The notes under the pieces were generated by a model. The model saw only the letters and a list, made by a program, of their open reading frames with translations, searched no databases and was not told the DNA's origin. This document shows, in pieces, positions 1,172 to 29,026 of a stretch of 40,961 nt of DNA. Made by a program: the position numbers and the translations under genes. Position 1 is the first letter of the stretch. Every line of letters starts with the position of its first letter. The stretch comes from Oscillospiraceae bacterium (GTDB lineage: Bacteria; Bacillota; Clostridia; Oscillospirales; Oscillospiraceae): contig JAFZDL010000086.1 of NCBI GenBank assembly GCA_017561205.1, positions 1-40,961 on the forward strand, in the 5' to 3' direction.

Positions 1172-1184
1172 GATTTTGATACTG

Positions 1185-1217
1185 ATCCGGGAAGCGGTTT
1201 CGCTTCCCGGATTCTTT
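1185..1217 (+). terminator. Rho-independent terminator after the GGGtGRT gene
   Basis: A perfect 12-bp stem (ATCCGGGAAGCG paired with CGCTTCCCGGAT) has a GTTT loop and is followed by TCTTT. It begins 13 bases after the GGGtGRT stop codon. The U-run is short, but the stem is long and GC-rich. Confidence 0.85.
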
Positions 1218-1228
1218 AGGAGCAAACT

Positions 1229-1981
1229 ATGAAAGAAGTACTGTATACCATCCCTGTCAACGAGGGATTTGAGGCGGATGACGAATGCCCCTTCTGCTTT
1301 ATGGAGCGGGCAGAGGAGGAGCGGGCCCTGCGGTATGTGGCCGGTCCTGCCGCAACCTATATGGAACCCACTGTCCGGGCGGCTACCGGCCGTGTGGGAT
1401 TTTGTACCCACCATATGAAATCTCTCTATGACTTTGGCAATAGCTTGGGCGCGGCATTGCTGCTCCAGACCCACTATACCTCTGTGTTAGACGAGCTGAA
1501 GAAGAAAGCGAGAAATCCGGAAATTCCTGCGAAAAAGAGCCTCTTTGGCAAGAAAGCAGCCCCTGCGGATACCCCTTATTGGGAAGTCTTGGCCTCCCGT
1601 GAGCATAGCTGCTATATCTGCGATAAGATCGAGTACAATATGTCCCGGTGCTACCATACTTTCTTTGAACTGCTGAAAGAGGATGAATTCCGGTCGAAGC
1701 TGAAAAACTCCAAGGGCTTCTGCGTGCGCCATTTCGCCCGGATGTTAAAAGAAGCGGAGCGCTACCTGCCCGAGAGCCAAAAGGATTGGTTCTATCCCAC
1801 GGTCTATAAGCTGATGACAGAGAATATGGAACGGGTGCAGGAGGATTTGGAGTGGTTCATTGCCAAGTTTGACTACCGCAATGCCTCCGAGCCTTGGAAA
1901 AACTCCCAGGATGCGCTTCCCCGCACTATGCAAAAGCTCCAGGGTCTGCATCCCAGTGATCCGCCCTTTAAGAATAAATAA
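1229..1981 (+). CDS. DUF6062 family protein
   Basis: A 250-residue soluble protein with paired Cys/His clusters typical of DUF6062: CPFC at residues 20-23, FCTHH at 58-62, CYIC at 128-131 and C165-x-x-H168. The pattern looks like two repeated zinc- or metal-binding units, each a CxxC followed by a C-x-x-H or CxHH about 35-40 residues later. No membrane segment is seen. An AGGAG RBS lies at 1218-1222. The gene is followed closely by the XRE regulator (13 bases). The function of the family is unknown; the paired metal sites suggest a structural or redox role, which is inference. Confidence 0.8.
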   Translation: MKEVLYTIPVNEGFEADDECPFCFMERAEEERALRYVAGPAATYMEPTVRAATGRVGFCTHHMKSLYDFGNSLGAALLLQTHYTSVLDELKKKARNPEIPAKKSLFGKKAAPADTPYWEVLASREHSCYICDKIEYNMSRCYHTFFELLKEDEFRSKLKNSKGFCVRHFARMLKEAERYLPESQKDWFYPTVYKLMTENMERVQEDLEWFIAKFDYRNASEPWKNSQDALPRTMQKLQGLHPSDPPFKNK

Positions 1982-1994
1982 GCGGAGATTCACT

Positions 1995-2594
1995 ATGGAA
2001 TTTAACGAAAAGTTACAGGAATTGCGCAAGCAAAAAGGCCTGACCCAAGAGGAATTGGCCGATGCCCTGTTCGTATCCCGTACAGCAGTTTCCAAATGGG
2101 AGTCGGGTAGGGGATACCCCAATATTGATTCGCTAAAGTCTATCGCCAAATTCTTTGGTGTTACACTCGACCAACTGCTTTCTACAGAACAGGTGCTGAC
2201 CATCGCCCGGGAAGACCAAAAAGAAAAAGAGCGCCATGTCCGTAATGTGGTCTTTGGCTTGTTGGATCTAAGTGTTGCGCTTTTTCTGTTCTTGCCACTG
2301 TTTGGACAGAGTGTCGACGGGGGAGCGGAGGCGGTTTCCTTGCCGCAGCTTACCCAAATTTCCGGGTATTTGAAAATTGGATATTTTGTGATTGTGATTT
2401 TCAGCGCCCTGTGGGGCATTTTGATGCTGGCTTTGCAGAATTATCCTTTCAAATGGAAAACACTCATTTCTATTCTCATTACTGCTGTGGGCACGCTTTT
2501 GTTCATTATCAGCCGGCAGCCTACCGGCGCGACCTTGCTACTGGTGTTTTTGGCAATAAAAGTGTTGATGACACGGAAGGTGTCATCCCTGTGA
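1995..2594 (+). CDS. Membrane-anchored XRE-family transcriptional regulator
   Basis: A 199-residue protein starting at ATG 1995, preceded by a GCGGAG RBS. Residues about 8-62 form a classic Cro/CI-type helix-turn-helix (LTQEELADALFVSRTAVSKW, then GYPNIDSLKSIAKFFGVTLDQLL). After a charged linker come about four hydrophobic segments (roughly 85-105, 128-150, 155-172, 178-192), so the DNA-binding domain is tethered to the membrane. This layout is common among Firmicutes regulators of neighbouring membrane-protein genes, which suggests that the PAP2-like gene 82 bases downstream could be a target (inference). An upstream in-frame start inside DUF6062 is rejected because it would overlap that gene heavily. 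Confidence 0.85.
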   Translation: MEFNEKLQELRKQKGLTQEELADALFVSRTAVSKWESGRGYPNIDSLKSIAKFFGVTLDQLLSTEQVLTIAREDQKEKERHVRNVVFGLLDLSVALFLFLPLFGQSVDGGAEAVSLPQLTQISGYLKIGYFVIVIFSALWGILMLALQNYPFKWKTLISILITAVGTLLFIISRQPTGATLLLVFLAIKVLMTRKVSSL

Positions 2595-2619
2595 CAAGGC
2601 GTTTCTTGTGAAAAAGAAT

Positions 2620-2669
2620 AACCTCCTGTATGGTGTATGTGGGCAGATGCCCAACACTTACAGGAGGTT
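2620..2669 (+). promoter_or_regulatory. Hairpin that sequesters the RBS of the PAP2-like gene (or terminator overlapping it)
   Basis: AACCTCCTGTA at 2620-2630 pairs perfectly with TACAGGAGGTT at 2659-2669. Inside, GTGT/ACAC and GGGC/GCCC (2641-2644 with 2649-2652) add further pairs around an AGAT loop. The 3' arm contains the AGGAGG ribosome binding site for the ATG at 2677, so the folded form hides the RBS. It is followed by TTTTATATT, so the same fold could act as a terminator for the regulator gene upstream. Both readings predict low expression of the downstream gene unless the structure is opened. Confidence 0.7.
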
Positions 2670-2676
2670 TTATATT

Positions 2677-3318
2677 ATGAATAAAAAGAAATTTGTCCTT
2701 GCGCTTGCCTTGATAGTGGCATTTTCCTTGTGGACACTTGCGCTTTGCTATGTGGATGTGCAGCCTATCGGCCCTCGGGAATCTGCCGTGGGCTTTGCAA
2801 CCCTGAATGGCTTTGTCCACAGACTCACGGGTGTAAATATGACTCTGTATACGATTACCGATTGGCTGGGCTTGGTGCCGGTTGCCTTTGGCTTCGGTTT
2901 TGCCATATTGGGCCTTTTTCAATGGATCAAGCGGAAAAATATCTTAAAAGTTGATTCTGATATTTTGGTGCTTGGCGGCTTTTACATTCTTGTGTTGGCA
3001 GTTTATATTCTTTTTGAAACTGTGGTGATCAACCGCAGACCGGTGCTGATTAACGGCTATTTGGAGACATCCTATCCTTCGTCCACCACGCTGCTTGTGC
3101 TGTGCGTAATGCCTACAGCGGCCCTACAGCTTCGCAATCGGCTGAAAGCAGTGATGCTGCGGAATATTGTCACCACTACGATCGCTGCTTTTGTAGTCTT
3201 TGTGATCGGCGGCAGACTCTTATCTGGTGTCCATTGGCTTTCTGACATTGTAGGCGGAATCCTTTTAGCCGGCGGCCTGGTGGTGGCCTATGATACAACC
3301 TGCCACCTTGTAGAATGA
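2677..3318 (+). CDS. PAP2-superfamily-like membrane protein with altered catalytic motif
   Basis: A 213-residue protein with about five to six membrane segments, starting with a KKK-anchored hydrophobic helix. PAP2 phosphatases carry three motifs; here motif 1 is reduced to NRRP, motif 2 reads YPSSTT in place of the usual PSGH/PSSH, and motif 3 is present as GRLLSGVHWLSDIVGG with His and Asp in register. The motif-2 histidine, a general acid in active enzymes, is replaced by Thr. The ATG at 2677 is chosen because AGGAGG at 2662-2667 precedes it; earlier in-frame starts would include the hairpin. The fold assignment is good; phosphatase activity is doubtful. Confidence 0.8.
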   Translation: MNKKKFVLALALIVAFSLWTLALCYVDVQPIGPRESAVGFATLNGFVHRLTGVNMTLYTITDWLGLVPVAFGFGFAILGLFQWIKRKNILKVDSDILVLGGFYILVLAVYILFETVVINRRPVLINGYLETSYPSSTTLLVLCVMPTAALQLRNRLKAVMLRNIVTTTIAAFVVFVIGGRLLSGVHWLSDIVGGILLAGGLVVAYDTTCHLVE

Positions 3319-3337
3319 ATCACAGATTTAAGTAAAA

Positions 3338-4207
3338 CTATTTGTTATTATTGGAGAACACATCGGCAACTTCGCTGATTGTAATGTAGGCAAAATTGTC
3401 GATATCATGGACAAGTTCTTTCATACGTACTACCTGATAGCGATTCACAACAAAGTAGATCATAGATTTTTCTTTGTTGGAGTAGCCGCCTTTGGCATCT
3501 AAATAGGTTGCGCCGCTTCCGAATACTTCGCACAGCTTGCTGCACACTTCCTGGGGATGGTCGGTAATAATAATGGCGCATTTGGCTCTGTCAATGCCGT
3601 CTACAATAAAATCAATGGTTTTCAGTGCTGCGGCATAGGTGACGATAGAATACAGAGGCAGGATCCAGCTGTGCAGGATAATACCGCAAATGATATAAAG
3701 CAGGACATTATAGATCATCACAAAGGTTCCCACAGTGATACCAAGCCGCTTTGCAAAGATAACAGCCATAACCTCGATGCCGTCCATTGCGCCGCCGTAG
3801 CGGATTGCAAGACCGCTGCCAATGCCGGAGATCACGCCGCCAAACAGGGCGCAGAGCAGAAGATCTGTTCCTGCCAGGGGAGAGGCTATGCTCACATCAA
3901 TGGGCAGTACATCGGTTATCAACCAAGCGCACAGAGAATAAACAAAAACCGCAAAGATAGCGTATATGGTAAATCGCAAGCCTTGGTTTTTTAAGCCGAA
4001 TAAAAACAACGGAATATTTAGAATCAGCAGGAAAACAGAAAGTGTCAAAAATGACGGGGTCAGTTGATCCAAAAGCATAGAAGTACCGGAAATGCCACTG
4101 TCATAGAGCTTTACCGGCATCAAAAAGACTGTGATGCCAAATGCGTTTATAATACCCGCCATGGTGATCATCAATAGGTTTTTAACCTTGATTTTTTTTC
4201 CCTTCAC
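3338..4207 (-). CDS. YitT family membrane protein (DUF161 + DUF2179)
   Basis: A 289-residue protein. The first ~210 residues hold about six membrane segments typical of YitT/DUF161, including a GxGSGLAIRYGGAMDGIEV stretch conserved in the family. The last ~75 residues form the soluble DUF2179 domain (from about KCAIIITDHP onward), a small ligand-binding-like fold. The start codon is GTG with TGGAGGAATT upstream on the minus strand, and a weak extended -10 (TGATAGAAT) lies further upstream at 4246-4251. It lies downstream of, and in the same direction as, the displaced rpsI end. Substrate is unknown for most family members. Confidence 0.9.
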   Translation of the reverse strand: MKGKKIKVKNLLMITMAGIINAFGITVFLMPVKLYDSGISGTSMLLDQLTPSFLTLSVFLLILNIPLFLFGLKNQGLRFTIYAIFAVFVYSLCAWLITDVLPIDVSIASPLAGTDLLLCALFGGVISGIGSGLAIRYGGAMDGIEVMAVIFAKRLGITVGTFVMIYNVLLYIICGIILHSWILPLYSIVTYAAALKTIDFIVDGIDRAKCAIIITDHPQEVCSKLCEVFGSGATYLDAKGGYSNKEKSMIYFVVNRYQVVRMKELVHDIDNFAYITISEVADVFSNNNK

Positions 4208-4440: not shown

Positions 4441-4464
4441 AACCTCAAACTGAACCTCAAACTG
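4441..4464. repeat. Tandem 12-bp direct repeat between attachment site and integrase
   Basis: AACCTCAAACTG occurs twice in a row (4441-4452 and 4453-4464). The second copy overlaps the last codons of the integrase gene. Its position between the core site and int, and its tandem form, are typical of arm-type integrase binding sites. That role is inferred. Confidence 0.6.
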
Positions 4465-5653
4465 GGGTATCTTGAAAAGCCATATTCACTTTTGAGATAA
4501 GATCCTTTGGGCGGTTGTAGGTTAGGTGTGCGTAAATATCCAATGTGATCTTTGCGTTTTCGTGCCCGGCAAGAGCCTGGACAGTTTTAACATCCACGCC
4601 TGCCAGCAGCAGGTTCGTGATGTAGGTGTGCCGCAGCTGATGGGGTGTAACATGGAAATCGATACTGTAAACGACTTTGCTGTTATGCGCTGCAGCTTCA
4701 CCGAGAACCGGCTGCACCACATGCTTTGTCTTTACGCCGTCCTTGTACCGGTAGTAGACCCGTTCTTCTGCGGTCCGGGTCGTGATATACTTCCATAGCC
4801 GCTGCCACTGTGTTCCGGACAACGGCTCCCCATCCCGGTTGGCAATGACATAATCGGAGATCGAAGCTTCCTTGACGGCCTTCAGATGCCGCACAAGCTG
4901 TGGCGGTATCGGGATCGTGCGCCGGGAAGCTTTGGTTTTCAGATCGTGAGTAACCACAGGGCGGTTGTTCTCAATGTGCCAGGCACGATCCACATAAATG
5001 TGCGGTGCTGCATCGTCGAGGAAAACACAGTCCCATTGCAGAGCCAGAGCCTCTTCCCGGCGCAGACCGGAATATAGGCAGACCAGGACAAAGGTGTACG
5101 GGGGCAATCCTCTGATCGCATCAAGAAGGGTTTGCACCTGCTTTTCGGTGAGCGCCTTTTTCTCCTTGGCGCTCTTGCCGCCTTTTGGATCCAAGTCCTC
5201 ACACGGCGAATGATCTATGATGTCGCTTTTGTATGCCGAGTAGAAAATGGACTTGTAGAGCATCTGGACACTCCGGTAGATGGAAGCGGATCTTTCTGCC
5301 GCTTTGGTGATCGCCATATTCACATCGTCCGGGGTAACATCGGCCATATACTTATCACCGAGAGGTTCGATGATGTAATTCTTGACCTTTGAGGTGTAGT
5401 CGGCCAATGTGGTTTTGCGGACGTGTGCGGATCTCATTACGAGCCATTTTTCGGCATAGTCTTTGACGGTGGGGTTCTCCCGGCGAAAAACCGCTTCCTC
5501 GATCTCCCGTTCGGCCAGCTTGATTTTCATAGTCAGCTCGTCCGGATCCTTGGCATAGAGGGCAACATACTTTCCGTCGCTGTCCTTGATCCGCTTGCGG
5601 TATTGATTTCGACTGGGTACCCATTCGTAGGTTGGCTTTTTAGGGCGGGCCAT
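4457..5653 (-). CDS. int: Tyrosine recombinase / phage integrase
   Basis: A 398-residue integrase. The N-terminal part has an AP2-like arm-binding region (about 1-55) and a SAM-like core-binding domain (about 60-160). The catalytic domain shows all active-site residues: R198 (SGLRRE), K241 region (KTKASRR), H338 and R341 (HQLRHT), H364 (LAGHENAKIT) and the nucleophile Y374 (LDIYAHL). Length matches Firmicutes phage integrases. The start at 5653 is chosen for the AAAGGAGG RBS just upstream on the minus strand; an in-frame start 57 bases earlier lacks one. The gene ends 80 bases from the rpsI-derived site, the usual int/attP layout, and carries no frameshift, so it looks functional. Confidence 0.96.
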   Translation of the reverse strand: MARPKKPTYEWVPSRNQYRKRIKDSDGKYVALYAKDPDELTMKIKLAEREIEEAVFRRENPTVKDYAEKWLVMRSAHVRKTTLADYTSKVKNYIIEPLGDKYMADVTPDDVNMAITKAAERSASIYRSVQMLYKSIFYSAYKSDIIDHSPCEDLDPKGGKSAKEKKALTEKQVQTLLDAIRGLPPYTFVLVCLYSGLRREEALALQWDCVFLDDAAPHIYVDRAWHIENNRPVVTHDLKTKASRRTIPIPPQLVRHLKAVKEASISDYVIANRDGEPLSGTQWQRLWKYITTRTAEERVYYRYKDGVKTKHVVQPVLGEAAAHNSKVVYSIDFHVTPHQLRHTYITNLLLAGVDVKTVQALAGHENAKITLDIYAHLTYNRPKDLISKVNMAFQDTPV

Positions 5654-5864
5654 TGGAACCTCCTTTTTAGCTTGCGCCCTGTACCCGGCTATGTTATAAT
5701 AGCAGGGCAAGGCTGTGATCTGTGAGAGGGTCTATGCTGGGCATCTGCCGTCCGTGGTGTTGGCGCACCATGGGCGGCTCCTTCTATTTTAGGATCTCTA
5801 ATTACGAGATTATCATAGTTGCAGATATAGGTTAGCATTAGTATAGCAATAGAATAGAATAGCT

Positions 5865-16511: not shown

Positions 16512-17882
16512 ATGCCGAAGAAAAACAGTGAGAATGTAGAGCAGACAACCCAGCAGTTTGTGATGATCCCCATCGAGAAGCTGCACCCCCACCCGGACAA
16601 TCCCCGTAAAGAACTCGGAGATCTGACCGAGCTTGCCGACAGCATCCGTGCAAAGGGCGTGTTCCAGAACCTTACGGTGGTTCCGTTCGAGGATGATTAC
16701 CGTATTATCATCGGACACCGGCGCCGGGCAGCTTCCGAACTGGCCGGGTTGACGCACCTGCCTTGTGTGATCGTGGATATGACACCCAAGGAGCAGGTGG
16801 AAACGATGCTCTTGGAGAATATGCAGCGAGAGGACTTGACGCCTTACGAACAGGCTCAGGGCTTCCAAATGATGATCGACATGGGCGATACCGTGGAAGA
16901 GATCGTGCAGAAAACCGGCTTTTCCAAAAAGACGGTCAAGCGCCGGTTGAAGATGGCCGAACTGGATCCTACAGTTCTGAAAGAGGTGTCCTCCCGGCAG
17001 ATCTCCATGGAGGACTTCGATACCCTGGCGAAGATCGAGGACATCGGGCAGCGGAATGAGTGTTTGAAGAATATCGGCACCGCCAATTTCGCCATCGATG
17101 TCCAGAAGAAGATCAAAAAGCAGAACATCGAAAAGAACCTGCCTTGGGTAAAGACACAGATCCGCAAGGCGAAGGGCAATAAGATCAATCGCACTCAGAC
17201 CTATTACGGCAACCATTCGCAGATTGGTAATGACATCAATATCCACGAACTGACGGAGGAAACGCAGATCGTGCCGGACACCGGCACAAAAAAGCTGTTC
17301 TACTGTTTGGACGAGGATACCGGCAGACTTAGCTTCTATGTTGAAAAGGAAAAGCCTGCGCCGGTTCGCCGCCCTCAGGCAGAAATCGACCGGGAAAAGG
17401 CAATGGCAGAAGCAAATGAAAAGTGCGCCGAACTGTCGGCTCTGTGCTACAAGCTGAGATCTGAGTTCGTGAAAAAACTGTCCTACGGAAGCAAGAACCA
17501 AAAAGAAATGCTGTACGGACTGGTCAGGGCGATTATCAGCCACGGATTTCACTACGCAAGCGTTTCTTCGTCTGACCTGTTTGCGATTCTTGGAGAGGAA
17601 AGAAAGTGGGAAAGTGGCGAAGAAAAGGGGCTCACTGAGCGGCTTTTGGAAAAGCCGGCAAGCACCTACCCTGGAATTGTGTATGCGGCGTTCTGCGACA
17701 AAGACACAGAGGTTTACCATACGACCTACAAGAAGCAGTGGCCTAAGCACCACGAGAATTTGCGGCTGGACGCCCTCTATGTGTGGCTTACCTCTGTCGG
17801 CTATGTTATGAGCGACGATGAAAAAGCCTTGCAGGATGGTACGCACAGCCTGTTTACCGATCCTCAGCAGGTAAAGAGCTGA
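16512..17882 (+). CDS. ParB/Spo0J-family partition-like protein
   Basis: A 456-residue protein. The N-terminal domain carries the CTP-binding ParB box (GHRRRAA at about 68-74; ENMQRED at about 102-108), then a helix-turn-helix (about 128-145, EEIVQKTGFSKKTVKRRL). It is longer than typical ParB (about 290 residues) because a ~250-residue C-terminal region of unknown fold follows, with a coiled-coil segment around 290-330. There is no ParA nearby, which is usual for phage ParB-like proteins; a role in transcription or DNA organisation is as likely as partition. RBS AAAGGAG at 16497-16503. Ends one base before the next gene. Confidence 0.88.
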   Translation: MPKKNSENVEQTTQQFVMIPIEKLHPHPDNPRKELGDLTELADSIRAKGVFQNLTVVPFEDDYRIIIGHRRRAASELAGLTHLPCVIVDMTPKEQVETMLLENMQREDLTPYEQAQGFQMMIDMGDTVEEIVQKTGFSKKTVKRRLKMAELDPTVLKEVSSRQISMEDFDTLAKIEDIGQRNECLKNIGTANFAIDVQKKIKKQNIEKNLPWVKTQIRKAKGNKINRTQTYYGNHSQIGNDINIHELTEETQIVPDTGTKKLFYCLDEDTGRLSFYVEKEKPAPVRRPQAEIDREKAMAEANEKCAELSALCYKLRSEFVKKLSYGSKNQKEMLYGLVRAIISHGFHYASVSSSDLFAILGEERKWESGEEKGLTERLLEKPASTYPGIVYAAFCDKDTEVYHTTYKKQWPKHHENLRLDALYVWLTSVGYVMSDDEKALQDGTHSLFTDPQQVKS

Positions 17883-22709: not shown

Positions 22710-23468
22710 ATGAAGAAACATATTGCATCTTGTTCCTTTGGGAAAGACAGTTTGGCGGCGATCATAGTAGGACTGGAAAATAATGAGCCTATGGATGGCG
22801 CTTACTACTGCGAAGTGATGTTCAATCAGTGGATCAGCGGTGAAGTGCCCGAGCACCGAAATTTTATATACGAAACGGCGATACCTTTCCTTGAAAAAGC
22901 GGGTGTTAAGGTGGATGTGGTGCGAGGGAAAAAGACATTCGTTGATCTGTTCCAACACAAGATTGCCGGGGATGGCGATTGGGCCGGTTGCATTTGGTCG
23001 TGGCCGCTATGCAGCAGATGCTATGTGCAACGAGATTGCAAAACCAGACCGTTGGAAGCTTACAAAAAGCAGCAATGGAGCGGGCTTGAGGTTGCTCAGT
23101 ACATTGGTTATGCATCCGATGAACAAGTGCGGCTTGCCAAGCTGGACGGAACAAAGAAAATTTCGTTATTAGATAAGTATGGCATAACCGAGGATGATGC
23201 TACAAGAATATGTGAATCGTACGGGCTGCTGTCTCCAATATATGAATTTGCTCCAAGAAATGGCTGCTGGTTTTGCCCCAATGCAAAGGAGCCGGAACTG
23301 CTGCACTTACGAAAGTACCACCCACACCTATTTGAAGATCTGTTGAAACTCCAAGCTCTTCCGTGCAAGGCAACGGAGAAGTTCAACAGGGATATGACAC
23401 TGTACGAACTCGATCGGCACCTGCGCTCGTTAGAGGATGATTTGAAAAAAAGGGGTAGCAGGATATGA
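22710..23468 (+). CDS. PP-loop / PAPS-reductase-like ATP pyrophosphatase (first of two)
   Basis: A 252-residue protein with an N-terminal PP-loop signature, SFGKDS at residues 9-14, the ATP-binding loop of the PAPS reductase/ATP sulfurylase-like family. Cysteine pairs follow: CSRC with a further C at about 101-110 and GCWFC about 185-190, likely coordinating metal or an Fe-S cluster. This is the phage-type PAPS-reductase-like protein, related to DndC-like enzymes that load sulfur onto DNA, but DndC partners are absent. A larger relative is at 26281. RBS GAGCACGGAGC is weak; the ATG is supported by the PP-loop position. Confidence 0.8.
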   Translation: MKKHIASCSFGKDSLAAIIVGLENNEPMDGAYYCEVMFNQWISGEVPEHRNFIYETAIPFLEKAGVKVDVVRGKKTFVDLFQHKIAGDGDWAGCIWSWPLCSRCYVQRDCKTRPLEAYKKQQWSGLEVAQYIGYASDEQVRLAKLDGTKKISLLDKYGITEDDATRICESYGLLSPIYEFAPRNGCWFCPNAKEPELLHLRKYHPHLFEDLLKLQALPCKATEKFNRDMTLYELDRHLRSLEDDLKKRGSRI

Positions 23469-23749
23469 AAAGAAGAAACCGAGAGTCGAGATCTCGGATA
23501 AAACTCATTCAGGAAAAGCGCCTCACCAAAGAGGAACAGGCGTACATTGGAAACGCCTTGCTAAAACAGAAAAAGCGGTACACCGCCGCATACACCGACT
23601 ATCGCAATGGCCTGTACTTTTCGTACGATCTGGTGATAGGTATGATGCGAGGATCCCGAGCATGCGCAGCGGCAGGCGTGTCGGTAAGTCAAGTAACTGA
23701 TGCTGTGCGCAATCTTGCCGAAGCTGCAAAGTATGCAATCAATACATAG
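23465..23749 (+). CDS. Small phage protein, unknown function
   Basis: A 94-residue basic protein with a helical middle (DYRNGLYFSYDLVIGMMRG) and an Ala-rich tail. It overlaps the PP-loop gene by an ATGA junction. No motif recognised. Confidence 0.65.
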   Translation: MKRRNRESRSRIKLIQEKRLTKEEQAYIGNALLKQKKRYTAAYTDYRNGLYFSYDLVIGMMRGSRACAAAGVSVSQVTDAVRNLAEAAKYAINT

Positions 23750-23761
23750 GAGTGATATAAT

Positions 23762-24016
23762 ATGGCTCAAGAAACAAAGTGCCGTGGCTGCGGCGCACCG
23801 ATTGTTTTTGTTAAAACATCAGCAGGTAAATCCATGCCCTGCAATCCTGGACGGGTGCCGTTCTGGGCAAAACAAAGAGGATCCGGAAAGGTCGTAACCG
23901 TCAGCGGTGATGTAGTCAGCTGTGAGTTCGACGGACCTCGCTCCACAGTTTCCGGCTTCGGCTTTGTATCTCATTTCAGCACCTGTCCGAATGCCGATAA
24001 ATTCCGTAAGAAGTAA
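23762..24016 (+). CDS. Small zinc-ribbon-like protein, unknown function
   Basis: An 84-residue protein with CRGC at residues 7-10, a lone Cys in SMPCNPG around residue 27, and HFSTCP near the C-terminus: this C-x-x-C ... C ... H-x-x-x-C arrangement may form one zinc site in a small beta domain. Such proteins commonly precede late-gene regulators in clostridial phages. RBS AGGAGTGAT at 23750-23758. Confidence 0.65.
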   Translation: MAQETKCRGCGAPIVFVKTSAGKSMPCNPGRVPFWAKQRGSGKVVTVSGDVVSCEFDGPRSTVSGFGFVSHFSTCPNADKFRKK

Positions 24017-24036
24017 TTTGCAAGGGGGTGAACCGC

Positions 24037-24453
24037 ATGACACTGGATGAACTGAACATTCACTTTAATCTCGTTACCGAACTGAAAAAAGCCAAAGATA
24101 TGCTCCAGAACCTGTGGAATGCGGCTTATCCCGGAGGTCAAGTACTAACCGGCATGCCCCATGCACCGGGGGTAAAGGATAAGATCGGCGACTTGGGTAT
24201 TGAGATCGCAGACTTAGAAACAGAGATCGAAGCTATGGAAGCGATGGTCAACAACTCGGCTGTGCCGGTGCTTGCGTTCATAGCCGAGATCCCGGACATA
24301 CAGACACGCATGGTTTTCCGCTTGCGGTTTTGTCGTGGGTATCAATGGAAAGAGGTGGCAAGGATGCTTGGCGGTGGCAATTCTGAGGATAGTGTGAAAA
24401 AGGTTTGCTACCGGTATTTGGGCTTCACGGCAATACCGCCAAATGAGAAGTGA
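24037..24453 (+). CDS. Late-gene regulator-like protein (sigma-70 region 4 / ArpU-RinA-like)
   Basis: A 138-residue protein. The N-terminal ~80 residues are coiled-coil-like helices (ELKKAKDMLQNLWNAAYPGG, then EIADLETEIEAM). The C-terminal ~55 residues form a sigma-factor region-4-like helix-turn-helix: IPDIQTRMVFRLRFCRG, then YQWKEVARMLGG, then NSEDSVKKVCYRYL. It is the last gene before the terminal stretch of the early operon and just ahead of the cargo and packaging genes, the place of ArpU/RinA-type activators of late transcription. Start at ATG 24037 after AAGGGGGTG. No promoter target was found for certain. Confidence 0.75.
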   Translation: MTLDELNIHFNLVTELKKAKDMLQNLWNAAYPGGQVLTGMPHAPGVKDKIGDLGIEIADLETEIEAMEAMVNNSAVPVLAFIAEIPDIQTRMVFRLRFCRGYQWKEVARMLGGGNSEDSVKKVCYRYLGFTAIPPNEK

Positions 24454-24689
24454 GAAGTCGTCCTGTCTCCGCACGGCGTGTCACTTGCAATCCTGCTATA
24501 TGTGTGCTTTACTGTAAACTGTAAAATCTTAACAAGCCAGGCGGCCATCCCTCCGGGGGTGGCCGTCACTATTTTGGGAAGGAGGTTATAGGCTCTGCGT
24601 TTCTCCTTTGCGCAGGGTCTGATCCCGGGCAGGCGTCGGATCGCCAACCGTGCCGGCAGCGGGAAAATCATCAAAGGAGGAAAACCGTA
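24454..24689 (+). promoter_or_regulatory. 236-base gap before the transporter-like gene, with hairpins
   Basis: This is the first break in the operon. CGGCCA (24542-24547) pairs with TGGCCG (24560-24565) with GC-rich inner pairs, followed by a weak AT run, a plausible but weak terminator. A second hairpin has CTGCG-N11-CGCAG at about 24595-24620, downstream of an AAGGAGG that precedes no usable ATG. The segment therefore looks like a leader controlling the downstream cargo genes. No promoter with both elements was clear. Confidence 0.5.
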
Positions 24690-25685
24690 GTGTTTTCGAG
24701 AATTACAAACAAATTCAAAGCAAATCCCATGCTCTACTATGCGCTTAGCATAGCGGCATCCTGGGCCGGTGTCGGATCGCTGATGAACTCCGTCACTATG
24801 ACCCAGACCTATGGCATTGTCCCGTCCATCCTTTGGTCGCTCGGCAACTCCCTGGCGTGTATGCTGTTTGGCATCATTGCCTGCAAGCTGACAACGCTGC
24901 GGAGCCTTATGCGGACAAAGGGAATGAAATACGCCATCGGCATAATGTCGATCTTCCAACTGTGGATCAATATGAACGGCATCCGGGAAGTCTTTTCTGA
25001 TACGCCGATCGGCGCAGTTGGCGGAACGATCATTGTATATGCCGTGTGTATCGGCTTCATTATCGCACTGCTCAAATTCGGTATGATCCGGAATGTCCTC
25101 ACGGATGGTTTTTCGTGGATCGCTGTCTATGTGTTGGTAGCGATAGTAACAGCTGCAGCTTTTATCACAACCGGAGATCTCAATACCGGCATCGGCCTTG
25201 GCTTGGAGCCGGCGAATATGGAGGTCGGTTGGGTCAAGGGCTTACTGCTGCTGCCTGGTCCGTTTACATTCCCGTATTTCTTTGAACTGCTTGATTACAA
25301 TGATGTGAACCAAGATGCTACAAAAAAGTGTAATATCAAGCGGTCCTTCATCCTCGGTGGTGCGCTGTTCGGCTTCTATATGATCTTCACATTTGCGCTG
25401 GCATTTGTGCAGTTTACTCCCTGGCTGAACCTGCTGAAAGCGATCCTTGTCAGCATCATCGGCATTTCCACCATCTCCACCTTCATCTACTCCGAGTACA
25501 TTGTGTTTGGCAGAAAGCTCGGCTTGGCGATTGACATTACGGCAGTTGTGTTCTGGCCGTTGTTCATCAGCCTTGGCGTTATGGGTGTATGGACCCTCAT
25601 GGCTGAACTGCGGGTCTATCTCGTAATCGCCATGCTGCTGATCGCCCTTGTCCAGTGGGTGAAGCAGAAAGGGGTGCGCAGCTGA
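24690..25685 (+). CDS. Polytopic transporter-like membrane protein in a phage cargo cassette
   Basis: A 331-residue protein with about nine to ten hydrophobic segments. The first helix is broken by glycines (SIAASWAGVGSLMNSV), as in LeuT-type secondary transporters; later segments are GIVPSILWSLGNSLACMLF, AFITTGDLNTGIGLG and others. The C-terminus has two further helices and a basic tail. No ABC motif or channel signature is seen. GTG start (24690) follows AAAGGAGGAAAACC. It is translationally coupled to the ParB-like gene (TGATG), so it belongs with that set; an importer or exporter of a small substrate for the enzyme next door is the simplest idea. Family only guessed. Confidence 0.7.
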   Translation: MFSRITNKFKANPMLYYALSIAASWAGVGSLMNSVTMTQTYGIVPSILWSLGNSLACMLFGIIACKLTTLRSLMRTKGMKYAIGIMSIFQLWINMNGIREVFSDTPIGAVGGTIIVYAVCIGFIIALLKFGMIRNVLTDGFSWIAVYVLVAIVTAAAFITTGDLNTGIGLGLEPANMEVGWVKGLLLLPGPFTFPYFFELLDYNDVNQDATKKCNIKRSFILGGALFGFYMIFTFALAFVQFTPWLNLLKAILVSIIGISTISTFIYSEYIVFGRKLGLAIDITAVVFWPLFISLGVMGVWTLMAELRVYLVIAMLLIALVQWVKQKGVRS

Positions 25686-26290
25686 TGGAAATTACCGTTA
25701 AGAAGCTGTCAGAGCTGCGCCCCGCAGCGAAGAATGTTCGCCGGCACACCGATAAGCAGATCGCCGAGTATATCCGTTCTTTGGAAATGTTCGGACAGAT
25801 CAAGCCGATTATCGCTGATGAACACGGCGAGATCATTGCCGGCAACGGTCTGTATCAGGCTTTGGTACAGATGGGCAAGGAAACCTGCGACTGCTACATT
25901 CTGTCTGGGTTGTCCGAAAATCAGAAAAAGAAGCTGATGCTTGCGGATAACCGGGTGTACGAACTCGGCATCACGGATATGGACGCCTTTGACGAAATTA
26001 TCCGGGAACTGGGTAACGACATCGATGTGCCCGGATGGGATGAAGATCTACTGTCTATGATGAACGCAGCTGCGGAGGACGTGGACGATATTGTGAACGG
26101 CTACGGCAGTTACGAGGAAGCCGATGTGAGCCGCCTGGCTGAACGGAAAGCCCCGGACAATGTTCCTACCTCTGCTCCGGTTGAAACCCCGGTTGCAACG
26201 CCGCAGGTAGCCCCTCAACCCGAAGGAAGCCAGGGGCAGGTACAGCGAGTGATCGTCTGCCCTAAGTGTGGTGAGCAGATATGTCTGTAA
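25685..26290 (+). CDS. ParB-like nuclease-domain protein (IbrB-like), first copy
   Basis: A 201-residue protein with an N-terminal ParB-like (sulfiredoxin-fold) domain: LRPAAKNVRRHTDKQIAEYIRS, then IKPIIADEHGEIIAGNGLYQAL and GLSENQKKKLMLADNRVYELG. The usual GxRR catalytic/CTP box is replaced by AGNG, as in IbrB-type proteins. A Pro/Val-rich linker (about 145-185) ends in VCPKCGEQICL, an unpaired CxxC that could pair with another CxxC or bind zinc with its partner. The stop overlaps the start of the PAPS-reductase-like gene by 10 bases. Confidence 0.75.
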   Translation: MEITVKKLSELRPAAKNVRRHTDKQIAEYIRSLEMFGQIKPIIADEHGEIIAGNGLYQALVQMGKETCDCYILSGLSENQKKKLMLADNRVYELGITDMDAFDEIIRELGNDIDVPGWDEDLLSMMNAAAEDVDDIVNGYGSYEEADVSRLAERKAPDNVPTSAPVETPVATPQVAPQPEGSQGQVQRVIVCPKCGEQICL

Positions 26291-27408
26291 AGAAATTCGA
26301 GAGCAGCATTAGTGTCCTCGATGCCGCAAAGACCAGGATTAAAAACCTGTTCGCCAGCGGGTGCAAGGTGTATCTGTCATTCTCCTGCGGTAAGGATAGC
26401 CTGGTGATGTCAAGTCTGACCTACGACTTGATTATGGCCGGCGAGATCGACCGCAAGCAGCTGACGGTGATATTCGTGGACGAAGAAGGTCTGTATAAGT
26501 CGATGGTGGATGCAGCCATGCGCTGGCGCAAAAAGTTTATGTCCATCGGCGTTCCGTTCCTGTGGCTCTGCTTGCCGGTGAAACAGGTGTCGGTACTCGA
26601 CCATCTGTCGGCATCGGAAAGCTGGATCACCTGGGAACCCGGAAAAGAGCACATGTGGATCCGGAAGCCGCCACCTTTTGCGATCTTCCAGCATCCCTGT
26701 CTGCACTACCCGGGGGAAATGAACTATCAGACCTTTTGCAAAAAGGCGTTCTCGGATGGTGTGCAGATGATCGGCCTACGCACGGCTGAGTCGCTTACGA
26801 GATTGCAGTGCATTTCCAGAGCGGATCTGTCGAAGATCAAACCGGGAGGAGCTTTTTATCCAATCTACGACTGGAAAGACAACGATGTTTGGCTCTACAT
26901 CAAGGAGCGAGGTCTTGTCTTTCCTGAAATATATATGCGCCTGTACGAAGCCGGTGTTCAGCGGAACCAGCTGCGCCTGTGCTGCTTCTTTGGAGATTGC
27001 AGCACGCAAGGCCTGCGGTGGATCGCCGAAACCGACAACGATCTGTGGGAGCGCATCCAGCGCCGGGAGCCTAACGCCTATCTCGTACTGCTGTACTGGG
27101 ATAGCGAAATGTTCCGCAGATCTTCCAACAAGCGCCGGGAACTCGAAAAGGATGAAGAGAAAAAGGACTACTGCGCCCTTTGTAAAGACATCCTTTTCCT
27201 GAACACCGATAAATACACCATTGCATCCGACACAAAGAAGCACCTTAAGGCTTGGCGTGGGCTTTTCACCAAAACCTACGGCGTTGCCCAGGAGAAGCAT
27301 TATAAGCGGATGTACGAGGGCCTGTTATACGGAGATCCCAAAATGCGCATACTCCGCATCCTCTGGACCGTGATCTACACGGACTACAACACCAAAGGAA
27401 GGGGGTGA
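26281..27408 (+). CDS. PAPS-reductase-like PP-loop protein (IbrA-like, DUF3440-type)
   Basis: A 375-residue protein with the PP-loop SFSCGKDS at residues 33-40, a VFVDEEG strand, and a PNAYLVLLYW segment. A cysteine set occurs at about 235-245 (LRLCCFFGDCS) and the C-terminal DUF3440-like region has a KDYCALCKDIL motif (about 298-308). This layout (PP-loop domain plus DUF3440 tail) is that of IbrA, a prophage-encoded protein from E. coli that with IbrB (ParB-like) affects expression of other genes. Enzymatic product is not known. ATG overlaps the previous gene, so expression is coupled. Confidence 0.82.
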   Translation: MSVKKFESSISVLDAAKTRIKNLFASGCKVYLSFSCGKDSLVMSSLTYDLIMAGEIDRKQLTVIFVDEEGLYKSMVDAAMRWRKKFMSIGVPFLWLCLPVKQVSVLDHLSASESWITWEPGKEHMWIRKPPPFAIFQHPCLHYPGEMNYQTFCKKAFSDGVQMIGLRTAESLTRLQCISRADLSKIKPGGAFYPIYDWKDNDVWLYIKERGLVFPEIYMRLYEAGVQRNQLRLCCFFGDCSTQGLRWIAETDNDLWERIQRREPNAYLVLLYWDSEMFRRSSNKRRELEKDEEKKDYCALCKDILFLNTDKYTIASDTKKHLKAWRGLFTKTYGVAQEKHYKRMYEGLLYGDPKMRILRILWTVIYTDYNTKGRG

Positions 27409-27412
27409 GCGC

Positions 27413-27937
27413 ATGGCGAATAATGACCTCTTCTCTCCACTGGCATCTTTGCAGTGGGTGGACCGTACAAAGCTGAAGGCCAACGACTATAACCCCAATA
27501 AGGTTAGCGAGGATAATTTGAAACTGCTGGTGCAGTCGATCCTCACGAACGGTTGGACTTTGCCTATTGTTGTAAGACCTGACTACACCATCATTGATGG
27601 CTTTCATCGTTGGACTGTTTCTGGCCGAGAGCCGCTATATACGAAGCTCGGTGGTAAAGTACCTGTGGTTATCGTGGACCATGATGATGAGGCGGACGAT
27701 GTATACGGTACCATCACCCATAACCGTGCCCGTGGTACACATCTGCTCGAACCTATGAAAGCGATCGTTAAGAAGCTGATGGACGAAGGTAAAACTGTTC
27801 CGGAGATAGGTAAGCAGCTGGGTATGAAGCCCGAGGAAATCTTTAGGCTGTCTGACTTCTCTCGTGAAGAGTTCCTGGCTATGATGACCAAGGGTGTGCA
27901 GGGCTATAGCAAAGCTGTGGTGTATCGCTCTACATAG
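27413..27937 (+). CDS. ParB-like protein (IbrB-like), second copy
   Basis: A 174-residue protein with a ParB-like domain: LQWVDRTKLKANDYNPNKVSE, PIVVRPDYTIIDGFHRWTVSG and VPVVIVDHDDEADDVYGTITHNRARGTH. The DGFHRW stretch stands where ParB proteins have GxRR, typical of IbrB-like and ParB/Srx-fold enzymes. A short helix-turn-helix (MDEGKTVPEIGKQLGMKPEEIFRLS) follows. It lies four bases after the IbrA-like gene, with RBS GGAAGGGGGTGAG. Together with 25685 and 26281 it makes a ParB/PAPS-reductase/ParB set. Confidence 0.82.
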   Translation: MANNDLFSPLASLQWVDRTKLKANDYNPNKVSEDNLKLLVQSILTNGWTLPIVVRPDYTIIDGFHRWTVSGREPLYTKLGGKVPVVIVDHDDEADDVYGTITHNRARGTHLLEPMKAIVKKLMDEGKTVPEIGKQLGMKPEEIFRLSDFSREEFLAMMTKGVQGYSKAVVYRST

Positions 27938-28191
27938 TAGCTGCTGTTGTGTTCGCTGTGAGCCAACAGGCGAAGCGCAGAGAAGCGATAGCTATAAGTC
28001 GAGTGTTAACCTTGCTGAGACCGGAGAGGGCTTTGGAGAGCCGCTGAGCGGTGTTGCAACCCGGAAAAAGGTACTGTGACGGGGTGCCCGGGTTTTGGTG
28101 CGGGCTCGTCGACCCCGAAATTCGTTTAGTTAGTAAGGGGAATTTCTACCCGTTTCGTTACACTTTATGTAACACCCCTCCGGGAACGGCT

Positions 28192-28224
28192 GGCAAATGA
28201 CCGGCAAATTACAGGCAAGTTAAC
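28192..28224 (+). repeat. Three phased 11-base direct repeats
   Basis: GGCAAATGACC (28192-28202), GGCAAATTACA (28203-28213) and GGCAAGTTAAC (28214-28224) follow without gaps. One repeat per helical turn puts the same bases on one face of the DNA, as in iterons and terminase R-sites. Confidence 0.7.
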
Positions 28225-28289
28225 GCACACTTTTCAGCGATCCGTGCGTTATAACACACACAAATCCTCTTTTTTGCGTTATTAACGCA
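28220..28289. repeat. Four copies of TGCGTTA(A/T) in alternating orientations
   Basis: Reverse TTAACGCA at 28220-28227, forward TGCGTTAT at 28245-28252, forward TGCGTTAT at 28275-28282 and reverse TTAACGCA at 28282-28289. The first two enclose a 15-base loop with TAACGCAC/GTGCGTTA arms; the last two share one base to form the palindrome TGCGTTATTAACGCA. The starts of the forward copies are 30 bases apart and those of the reverse copies 62 apart, near whole helical turns. Confidence 0.7.
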
Positions 28290-28360
28290 GAAAAGTGCGA
28301 TAAGGGTTTTTCGGTTGGGCATGGCCGAGATCCCCTATGATATCTCCTAATATGACCACA

Positions 28361-28436
28361 AGCAGGTAAGGGTCACGCAGACGGTTGCTGGTACCAACCT
28401 TATGTGCTCCGGTGCAATTCCGTGTGAGCCTGCGCT
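28361..28436 (+). ncRNA. Candidate structured RNA, partly tRNA-like, just before the terminase gene
   Basis: GCAGG (28362-28366) pairs with CCTGC (28429-28433); inside, TCACGC (28373-28378) pairs with GTGTGA (28422-28427); within that a perfect 5-bp stem GGTTG/CAACC closes a 7-base loop CTGGTAC (28383-28399), which is shaped like a tRNA anticodon arm with GGT in the middle. A T-arm-like GGTGCAATTCC follows. However the D-arm lacks GG and the acceptor is short, so a functional tRNA is unlikely. It may be a leader RNA of the terminase gene. Confidence 0.4.
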
Positions 28437-28459
28437 AAAAAGCGAAAGGAGATTGCTAT

Positions 28460-29026
28460 ATGGCTGGAACAGAAGAAAAGATCACGGACGAAACCGAAGT
28501 CAATGTTACCGAACTGGCTACGGTGCTGGGTGTGACTGCCCGGCGTGTTCAGCAGATGGGACAGGACGGCACCATTACGGCGGTGCGCCGTGGCCGCTAC
28601 CTGCTGTGCGATAGTGTCCAGCGATATATCAATTTCCTTTCCAAGCCTGCTGTCGACGACGAGGACAAAAAGACAGAAAAGGCCAAGAGGATGGCCGAGG
28701 CTCAGATCAAGGCGGCAAAGGCTACCGTCGCAAAGATGGAAGCTGAGGAATTAAAGGGCAATATGCACCGGTCGGAAGATGTGGCAGCTATGACGGAAGA
28801 TCTCATTTTTGCCATCCGGGGTGCGCTCAATGCTCTGCCCGGTAGAGTTGCGGTAGATACCGCCAACGCCACGACCGCTGCGGAAACTGCCGAGATCATA
28901 CGCCGGGAAGTCCATAAGGCTATGGGCGAATTGGCGAACTACAAATACGATCCTAAGAAGTACGAAGAAAGAGTGCGTGAGAGGAGAAGCTGGGCTGCAT
29001 CGGAGAGTGACGACGATGGCGGTTAG
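28460..29026 (+). CDS. Terminase small subunit, Nu1 family
   Basis: A 188-residue protein. The first ~60 residues form the winged helix of Nu1 (VNVTELATVLGVTARRVQQM, then GTITAVRRGRYLLCDSVQRYI), followed by a helix-rich region (KTEKAKRMAEAQIKAAKATVAKM; LKGNMHRSEDVAAMTEDL) that dimerises and contacts the large subunit. In lambda, Nu1 binds the R repeats next to the cos site; a dense set of repeats lies just upstream here. RBS AAAGGAG at 28445-28451. The 3' end overlaps the large-subunit gene by 11 bases. Confidence 0.9.
   Translation: MAGTEEKITDETEVNVTELATVLGVTARRVQQMGQDGTITAVRRGRYLLCDSVQRYINFLSKPAVDDEDKKTEKAKRMAEAQIKAAKATVAKMEAEELKGNMHRSEDVAAMTEDLIFAIRGALNALPGRVAVDTANATTAAETAEIIRREVHKAMGELANYKYDPKKYEERVRERRSWAASESDDDGG

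What the first reader, a model, noticed from the sequence alone, without database searches (positions are those of the whole stretch)
24690..27937. Phage cargo cassette: transporter-like protein coupled to ParB-like, PAPS-reductase-like and second ParB-like proteins
Four genes are joined by overlaps or a 4-base gap (25685, 26281, 27413). They sit alone between a leader with hairpins and the packaging region, neither early nor structural. The last three match the IbrB-IbrA-IbrB pattern: PP-loop (SFSCGKDS) with a DUF3440-like tail, flanked by two different ParB-fold proteins whose usual GxRR box is altered (AGNG; DGFHRW). I know of Ibr pairs as prophage regulators; the membrane transporter fused into the same translational unit is new to me. 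Hypothesis: the transporter brings in or removes a substrate for a nucleotide- or sulfur-related modification of DNA or RNA by the PP-loop enzyme, with ParB-like proteins choosing the target.
Basis: partly seen in the sequence, partly recalled or inferred. Interest (0 to 1): 0.8.

Follow-up and report, generated by a model that had tools for sequence, protein, structure and literature searches.

The report
Phage symporter coupled to PP-loop/ParB cassette
Many gut phages carry, just before their DNA-packaging genes, a tightly linked gene set that pairs a probable small-molecule transporter with an ATP-using enzyme and two DNA-binding-like proteins, which suggests that these phages import a building block to mark their own DNA.

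Summary
Four overlapping or abutting genes (24690-27937) lie between a late regulator and the small terminase of an integrated prophage. The set is a conserved module. In two sets of loci not retrieved by the transporter (92 distinct together), 13 are cut upstream and 79 of the other 79 have a transporter upstream. It is exchangeable: most have the window's 10-helix protein (TP), others a 13-helix sodium:solute symporter (Pfam SSF). The PP-loop tree needs 3-4 such swaps, and the 4-base overlap with the next gene is kept. TP matches those phage symporters by profile comparison, but not bacterial SSF profiles or Pfam; a reduced symporter core is inferred. The cassette precedes terminases of five PHROG families.

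The PP-loop protein is a distant IbrA relative without a recognised DUF3440 tail and is no CysH or DndC by curated scores. Transporterless relatives exist. The best mechanism, inferred and untested, is late import of a small solute used to modify phage DNA before packaging. Phage FP_Taranis carries the same four genes, annotated but not discussed in the main text searched. New variant of a known kind (Ibr-type PP-loop/ParB modules). No substrate or modification is shown.

The parts
24028..24453 (+). Late-gene regulator (RinA-like; sigma-region-4-like), directly upstream of the cassette; context, not part of it
   Evidence: phrog_36 transcriptional regulator 3.4e-9; homologues precede the cassette in many relatives; the homologue in FP_Taranis is annotated RinA-like
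24454..24689 (+). Leader with a terminator-like stem (24540-24567)
   Evidence: fold z -1.92; no Rfam match in the window; no promoter-like site on the + strand in 23700-29000
24690..25685 (+). TP: membrane protein with 10 TM-like segments, a reduced sodium:solute-symporter-like protein (inferred)
   Evidence: no Pfam/PHROG/NCBIfam hit; hhalign to 4 phage SSF symporters Prob 91.7, score 56.1, against at most 23.6 in 30 shuffled nulls; 10 TM-like segments
25685..26290 (+). ParB1: ParB-N-like protein related to the ParB domain of phage ParB-methyltransferases, with a conserved C-terminal CPKCGExxxL
   Evidence: phrog_620 3e-46, phrog_498 (DNA methyltransferase) 3.2e-30; PADLOC type II methyltransferase profile 1.6e-17; both Cys in 98% of 129 distinct sequences
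26281..27408 (+). PPL: PP-loop ATP-pyrophosphatase of the PAPS-reductase superfamily (phrog_2302)
   Evidence: PF01507 1.4e-10; phrog_2302 1.4e-82; S35, G37-S40 invariant in 17 aligned
27413..27937 (+). ParB2: ParB-N-like protein, the most conserved member
   Evidence: PF02195 2.6e-7; phrog_2159 8.1e-72; DGFHRW and HNRARG at 95% or more in 124 distinct sequences
28460..29026 (+). Small terminase subunit that follows the cassette; context
   Evidence: phrog_57 8.6e-28

Best explanation
A late-expressed, horizontally mobile phage cassette in which a dedicated, probably sodium-coupled importer supplies a small polar solute to an ATP-dependent modification enzyme. TP (or an SSF symporter in its place) brings the solute in. 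PPL, sometimes with a second PP-loop protein (PPLB), uses the PP-loop to adenylate a substrate so that the solute, or a group derived from it, can be attached; TilS, which attaches lysine to cytidine, is a recalled precedent for this chemistry. ParB1 and ParB2, nucleotide/DNA-binding-like proteins, bind and select the target. The target is most likely the phage's own DNA shortly before packaging, giving protection from restriction or another marking function. Shown: gene order, overlaps, conservation, transporter exchange, family assignments, position before terminases. Inferred: that TP transports, late expression, the adenylation chemistry, DNA as the target, and the benefit.
For: (1) Association: 66 of 66 and 26 of 26 distinct, upstream-visible relatives in two sets not retrieved by the transporter; together 79 of 79, 68 TP and 11 SSF. 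(2) TP and SSF symporters replace each other: fewest changes 4, at least 3 forced by starred branches of a quick tree, with sister groups L048(TP)/L049(SSF) and L116(TP)/L085-L087-L326(SSF) at SH-aLRT 100. All 12 SSF genes measured keep a -4 overlap with the next gene. Three replacements tested match Pfam SSF at 1.5e-23, 2.8e-23 and 1.7e-20. (3) TP matches the phage symporters in profile comparison and not MFS, xanthine/uracil permease or Na/Ala symporter profiles. (4) Position: of 145 distinct cassettes 93 have a modelled large terminase within 6 kb; 6 show only a small subunit, 24 contigs end under 3 kb downstream, 22 gave no model hit, and 4 of those 22 tested by PHROG are followed by terminases of other families. 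(5) ParB1 is kin to the ParB domain of phage DNA methyltransferases (3.2e-30). (6) DNA-modification-type genes occur inside related cassettes: a Dam methyltransferase in the transporterless variant L336 (7.7e-34) and a weak glucosyltransferase match in L014 (3.3e-8). (7) Published precedent: phage DNA amide ligase CmoY adds glycine to a modified base, and many contigs with its partner CmoX hold a ParBc protein (PMC12783734, passages).
Against: No substrate, activity or modified nucleoside is known. TP does not match bacterial SSF profiles directly (Prob 1.7-2.9), Pfam or a solved structure by sequence (one match, E 2.2, unrelated). PP-loop/ParB sets without a transporter exist: L309, L340, L335, L336, phage PJN03 and two-gene Ibr pairs; the 300-bit limit leaves such far PP-loop relatives out. 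The slot test did not help: of 35 late-regulator-bounded slots (not de-duplicated) 7 lack PPL and ParB2; 5 of these hold only short ORFs or a lone ParB1-like gene, and 2 (L313, L361) other genes that I read by eye only; no methyltransferase was recognised. The Dam and glycosyltransferase cases are single examples. The window's PPL seems to belong to a group with four shared cysteines, so a metal- or sulfur-dependent chemistry is open.
Confidence: 0.4

Rival explanations
1. Ibr-like regulation: PPL with the ParB-like proteins controls transcription of phage or host genes, and the transporter imports a signal or co-substrate.
For: IbrA/IbrB activate prophage eib genes (Sandt 2002, as cited in PMC7649339, passages; original not read); PPL is a distant IbrA relative; the FP_Taranis genes are annotated IbrA/IbrB.
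Against: No DUF3440 tail recognised; the position before terminases rather than regulators; a PP-loop enzyme is an unusual transcription factor. DNA modification could itself be how IbrAB acts, so the two readings overlap.
Confidence: 0.2
2. Auxiliary metabolism: the cassette increases uptake and use of a nutrient (sulfur compound, amine, amino acid) for the host or for virion production.
For: PHROG and a Clostridium prophage study (PMC11318856, passages) file such genes as auxiliary or host-metabolism PAPS reductases; TP homologues sit in bacterial operons with leucyl-tRNA synthetase and a prolyl-tRNA-synthetase-like gene.
Against: Not a PAPS reductase by curated cut-off (13 of 254.2 bits) and no Cys near the C-terminus is conserved family-wide; ParB-like partners have no evident metabolic role; the place next to packaging genes does not fit a lysogenic benefit.
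Confidence: 0.15
3. Superinfection exclusion or counter-defence: the membrane protein and the nucleotide-binding partners sense or block other phages or host immunity.
For: Modular swapping and the phage-borne location fit an arms-race role; PADLOC gives weak DndC/BrxP similarity to PPL.
Against: No defence system is assigned: the best PPL match is 8.5e-6 over part of a BrxP profile; replacement of TP by a full symporter points to transport rather than a pore or receptor.
Confidence: 0.15
4. tRNA or other RNA modification by the PP-loop enzyme rather than DNA, possibly with sulfur.
For: Many characterised PP-loop nucleic-acid enzymes act on tRNA (recalled); PPL profile matches a tRNA thiolase structure at 7.5e-4 over 48 residues; 48 of 133 PPL sequences share Cys at columns 97, 153, 236 and 303.
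Against: Two ParB-like partners and kinship of ParB1 to methyltransferase ParB domains point to DNA; the cysteine set is absent from most of the family.
Confidence: 0.1

Closest known systems
Faecalibacterium phages FP_Taranis (MG711467) and Pioen (PP479940)
   Same: The same four genes in the same order; annotated in the FP_Taranis record as transporter membrane protein, nuclease, IbrA, IbrB, before the terminase
   Different: 50% (ParB1), 52% (TP), 73% (PPL) and 82% (ParB2) identity to FP_Taranis; annotation only: Ibr and transporter do not occur in the main texts of PMC5883640 and PMC11792537 (supplements not searched)
IbrA/IbrB pairs (E. coli phage PhiR5_2, Streptococcus phage CHPC1148, E. 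coli plasmid NZ_AP022088)
   Same: PP-loop gene followed by a ParB-like gene
   Different: Two genes; IbrA of PhiR5_2 carries DUF3440; no transporter in the operon. On the plasmid a C4-dicarboxylate transporter gene lies nearly 3 kb upstream and a TonB receptor 0.4 kb downstream, both on the other strand
Sodium:solute symporter family (Pfam SSF), phrog_20720
   Same: Occupies the TP position in 12 distinct cassettes; two tested are phrog_20720; profile similarity to TP
   Different: 13 against 10 TM-like segments; TP fails the Pfam SSF model
DndC / SspD PP-loop proteins of phosphorothioation
   Same: PP-loop of the PAPS-reductase superfamily with a ParB-superfamily partner (DndB, PMC10853773, passages)
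   Different: PPL scores 17.1 of 290.4 bits for DndC; no family-wide Cys cluster; DndD/E were not searched for beyond the genes scanned
CmoX/CmoY phage DNA hypermodification (PMC12783734)
   Same: ATP-dependent attachment of a small amine to phage DNA, ParBc proteins in many of the contigs (passages)
   Different: Amide ligase of the asparagine-synthetase type after a carboxymethyltransferase first step; 'transporter' does not occur in its main text

Membership tests
IbrA/IbrB module | PP-loop PAPS_reduct domain | tested here: met
   PF01507 41.9 bits against cut-off 22.5
IbrA/IbrB module | DUF3440 C-terminal domain in IbrA | tested here: not met
   no DUF3440 at E <= 0.1; E. coli phage IbrA 4.7e-33, transporterless variant L309 5.9e-6
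IbrA/IbrB module | ParB-like gene directly after the PP-loop gene | tested here: met
   ParB2 4 bases downstream
IbrA/IbrB module | activates transcription of prophage genes | not testable with these tools
   needs expression data
PAPS reductase (CysH) | curated model score | tested here: not met
   TIGR02057 13 of 254.2 bits; PRK02090 18.6 of 154
PAPS reductase (CysH) | catalytic Cys near the C-terminus (motif recalled) | tested here: not met
   only Cys97 is invariant in 133 distinct sequences; Cys beyond column 200 reach at most 58%
DndC phosphorothioation | curated model score | tested here: not met
   TIGR03183 17.1 of 290.4 bits
DndC phosphorothioation | three cysteines for a 4Fe-4S cluster (PMC10853773, passage) | tested here: inconclusive
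   no family-wide cluster, but 48 of 133 sequences have Cys at columns 97, 153, 236 and 303 together; the window's PPL has Cys at 97, 153, 234/235 and 301, which seem to correspond
SSF symporter (TP) | Pfam SSF model | tested here: not met
   SSF is not among the 16 families that any of 44 members match at E <= 5
SSF symporter (TP) | profile-profile similarity to SSF members | tested here: inconclusive
   Prob 91.5-92.8 to phage SSF symporters, 1.7-2.9 to bacterial SSF alone
SSF symporter (TP) | Na2-site Ser/Thr motif (STxS; recalled from PutP) | tested here: inconclusive
   S260 and S263 invariant in 44 sequences; assignment of the motif is recalled
ParB partition protein | curated ParB model score and GxRR box | tested here: not met
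   TIGR00180 15.5 and 30.4 of 58.45 bits; boxes read AGNG and DGFHRW
Moron (independent transcription unit) | own promoter and terminator | tested here: inconclusive
   no + strand promoter-like site by a simple consensus scan; the one + strand terminator-like stem lies upstream

The most novel reading that the evidence does not exclude
The cassette is a complete 'import and mark' system: a phage-encoded symporter fetches an external small molecule that a PP-loop enzyme attaches to phage DNA as a new, lysidine-like base modification, under ParB-type targeting, just before packaging. It would be a DNA modification system that carries its own nutrient transporter.
Probability: 0.25. Interest if true: 0.88.

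Novelty: new variant of a known kind. Interest (0 to 1): 0.6.

Why it matters
IbrA/IbrB-type PP-loop/ParB genes occur in many phages and plasmids (tblastn with PPL: 212 phage and 581 plasmid records with a match), and I know of no chemistry assigned to them. A version that is coupled to an exchangeable solute transporter suggests that the chemistry needs a small molecule from outside, and so narrows what to look for. It makes the function testable in an inducible gut phage (Pioen) by LC-MS of virion DNA and by transport assays, and would extend phage DNA hypermodification to imported substrates.

Tried and rejected
Filing TP by Pfam, PHROG, NCBIfam and PDB sequences gave nothing usable; the weak PADLOC match of TP to AAA-Csx3 (0.0029, 54 residues) was set aside as probable membrane-segment similarity. 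Slot-swap test: I expected DNA methyltransferases in the slot of related phages without the cassette; none was recognised in 7 such loci of 35, so this argument was dropped. CysH and DndC were rejected on curated scores. The palindromes between ParB2 and TerS were not pursued as ParB sites. A PF02133 comparison family gave no hits in 20 genomes and dropped out as a control. Literature: searches (and 56, swamped by unrelated uses of IBRA) listed no paper that by title, abstract start or passages read describes a transporter coupled to PP-loop/ParB genes; only this open-licence library was searched.

Rows dropped before counts: 4 and 1 loci as duplicates, 10 and 5 cut by contig ends, and 48 of 80 terminase-retrieved loci without a PPL above 300 bits (these include the transporterless variants L309, L335, L336 and L340). 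In one search, 13 of 148 distinct PPL rows without visible upstream were left out, and TP rows were thinned, to 70 tree rows in all. In one search only gene pairs over 70% identical with dS 0.1-1.5 were used for dN/dS.
Full report
What is there. The window begins at base 1 of a contig of a bacterial genome assembly. Host-type genes (GGGtGRT, DUF6062, PAP2, YitT, within 173-4207) are followed by an integrase on the minus strand (4457-5710, phrog_1, 8.4e-61), recombination and replication genes and a large ParB-like gene, then the late regulator, the four genes of the finding, and the terminase genes. I read it as an integrated prophage.

Families. PPL matches PAPS_reduct (PF01507) and phrog_2302; ParB1 phrog_620; ParB2 phrog_2159; TP nothing. 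TP is a rare family in bacterial genomes: 1 of 99 relatives and 1 of 391 genomes of the class, in both cases only the window's own genome. It is frequent in phage contigs: 18 loci by single-sequence scan and 80 kept of 82 confirmed by profile scan. In the collection of 84,980 species genomes there are 44 loci, by record title mostly Oscillospiraceae, Selenomonadaceae and unnamed Clostridia, with single records of other groups and two of Treponema.

Conserved module. In the pooled loci, reduced to 153 distinct sequences (two of them the window's own), 67 read TP-ParB1-PPL-ParB2 and 48 TP-PPLB-ParB1-PPL-ParB2. PPLB is a second PP-loop gene (phrog_424 in the one tested). These include loci found by TP, so I counted again in two sets not found by TP. 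Among 80 loci found by PPL, 76 are distinct, 10 end within 900 bases upstream, and 66 of the remaining 66 have a transporter upstream (63 TP, 3 SSF). Among 80 loci found by the small terminase, 31 distinct ones have PPL above 300 bits, 5 are cut, and 26 of 26 have a transporter (16 TP, 10 SSF). The sets share 15 sequences; together 92 distinct, 13 cut, 79 of 79 with a transporter (68 TP, 11 SSF). One search kept the best 80 of 279, and the 300-bit limit leaves out far PP-loop relatives, so the statement holds for this PPL clade. The 4-base overlap dominates: TP-ParB1 48 of 67, TP-PPLB 43 of 47, SSF to next gene 12 of 12. Median dN/dS is 0.131 for TP, 0.141 ParB1, 0.097 PPL, 0.117 ParB2.

Transporter exchange. 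In 12 of 148 distinct PPL loci an SSF symporter takes the place of TP (three tested match Pfam SSF at 1.5e-23, 2.8e-23 and 1.7e-20). On a quick maximum-likelihood tree (SH-aLRT only) of 70 PPL proteins the SSF label needs 4 changes, at least 3 forced by starred branches. The nearest relative of the window by PPL (L028, 89%) has a TP only 51% identical (L163, same contig), although its small terminase is 84% identical (L294, same contig), so TP types are exchanged too. I take this as the best evidence that the first gene's job is transport and that the rest needs it.

What TP is. Profile comparison of TP with 4 phage symporters gives Prob 91.7 and score 56.1, with 11 symporters 91.5-92.8. Controls: 30 TP alignments shuffled within 21-column blocks reached at most 23.6; MFS 18.8, xanthine/uracil 15.9, Na/Ala symporter 21.6. 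Bacterial SSF proteins alone reached only 24.9 and 26.8, hardly above noise, so the link runs through the phage symporters. By hydropathy TP has 10 TM-like segments, the symporters 13. This fits a symporter stripped to a LeuT-type core, but that is inference. The nearest solved relative of the L027 symporter is the urea symporter DUR3 (1.9e-14); among NCBIfam models its best are the symporter superfamily (125 of 184 bits), PanF (60.8 of 328) and PutP (56.5 of 515.5), all under cut-off. The substrate is unknown.

What PPL is. The PP-loop is invariant. Only Cys97 is invariant among cysteines in 133 distinct sequences, but 48 of 133 have Cys at columns 97, 153, 236 and 303 together, and the window's protein (Cys 97, 153, 234, 235, 301 among others) seems to belong to that group. 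A metal or Fe-S site in this group is possible, so sulfur chemistry is not excluded. CysH and DndC cut-offs are missed widely. The DUF3440 tail of IbrA is not recognised.

Position and mobility. Of 145 distinct cassettes, 93 have a modelled large terminase within 6 kb downstream, 6 show only a small subunit, 24 contigs end under 3 kb, 22 gave no model hit. I looked at ten of these 22 and tested four by PHROG: in all four a large terminase of another family follows; a fifth, phage PJN03, is annotated with one. With the window (phrog_15), L372 (phrog_979) and L009 (phrog_2; a locus whose own PPL is missing, but whose terminase type follows 14 other cassettes), the cassette lies before terminases of five PHROG families (15, 2, 9, 38, 979). 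A module that moves between different packaging genes and is found next to them wherever they could be identified fits a role at the time of packaging.

Variants without a transporter. L309, L340, L335 and L336 carry PP-loop, ParB2-like and ParB1-like genes in another order with no transporter in the slot (in L335 the slot is not bounded by the late regulator); the L309 PP-loop protein does match DUF3440 (5.9e-6), and L336, whose PP-loop frame is incomplete, has a Dam methyltransferase inside (7.7e-34). Phage PJN03 has ParB1-ParB2-PPL before the terminase and no annotated transporter there. The three ordinary Ibr pairs inspected are two genes. The transporter is therefore a trait of one PPL clade.

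Known or new. The FP_Taranis record carries the same cassette with the labels transporter, nuclease, IbrA, IbrB. In the main texts of the papers on Taranis and Pioen the words Ibr and transporter do not occur (supplements not searched). Ibr pairs have been noted as co-activators, regulators or possible virulence factors (PMC4490671, PMC7649339, PMC4541368, passages). My searches listed no paper that describes the coupling.

Verdict. A real, conserved and mobile four- to five-gene phage module; new variant of a known kind; a function in modifying phage DNA with an imported solute is the best guess, at about 0.4.

Noticed in passing
window 22710-23468 (+): A second PP-loop gene outside the cassette, SspD-like (PADLOC 3.3e-13) and phrog_424 (2.6e-21), rich in cysteines. 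Besides the window's own copy, only 2 loci of the first survey hold a homologue (L029, L133).
   Followed up: partly
L135 3017-4057, L136 3177-4232, L137 6953-8005, L139 2759-3763, L147 6255-6896: TP homologues in Clostridia MAG operons without phage genes in view: prolyl-tRNA-synthetase-like gene, HprK-like gene, TP, and in 4 of 5 a leucyl-tRNA synthetase (in L147 TP is short and no such gene follows). Identities tested in L137 (and the first gene of L147), the rest read by eye. May hint at an amino-acid-like substrate.
   Followed up: partly
window 16512-17882 (+): A third ParB-like protein of 456 aa in the early region (phrog_6218, 4.7e-79).
   Followed up: no
window 28228-28297: Cluster of inverted repeats, among them TGCGTTA-T-TAACGCA, between ParB2 and the small terminase: possible packaging or ParB-binding sites.
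   Followed up: no
L336 5020-5565; L014 7815-8636: Extra genes inside related cassettes: a Dam DNA methyltransferase (L336) and a protein weakly like glucosyltransferases (L014). The methyltransferase also matches part of phrog_33262, a PAPS-reductase family (2.4e-7), which hints at PP-loop/methyltransferase fusions.
   Followed up: partly
window 25685-26290 (end of ParB1): ParB1 ends in CPKCGExxxL, its two Cys conserved in 98% of 129 distinct sequences: half of a zinc ribbon at the very C-terminus.
   Followed up: no
L009 1043-1824: A cassette in which PPL is missing and ParB1 runs into a partial ParB2, beside TP: a deletion or an assembly artefact.
   Followed up: no
window 26281-27408 (+): In 48 of 133 PPL sequences Cys at alignment columns 97, 153, 236 and 303 occur together; the window's protein seems to be one of them. 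Possible metal or Fe-S site in one subgroup.
   Followed up: partly
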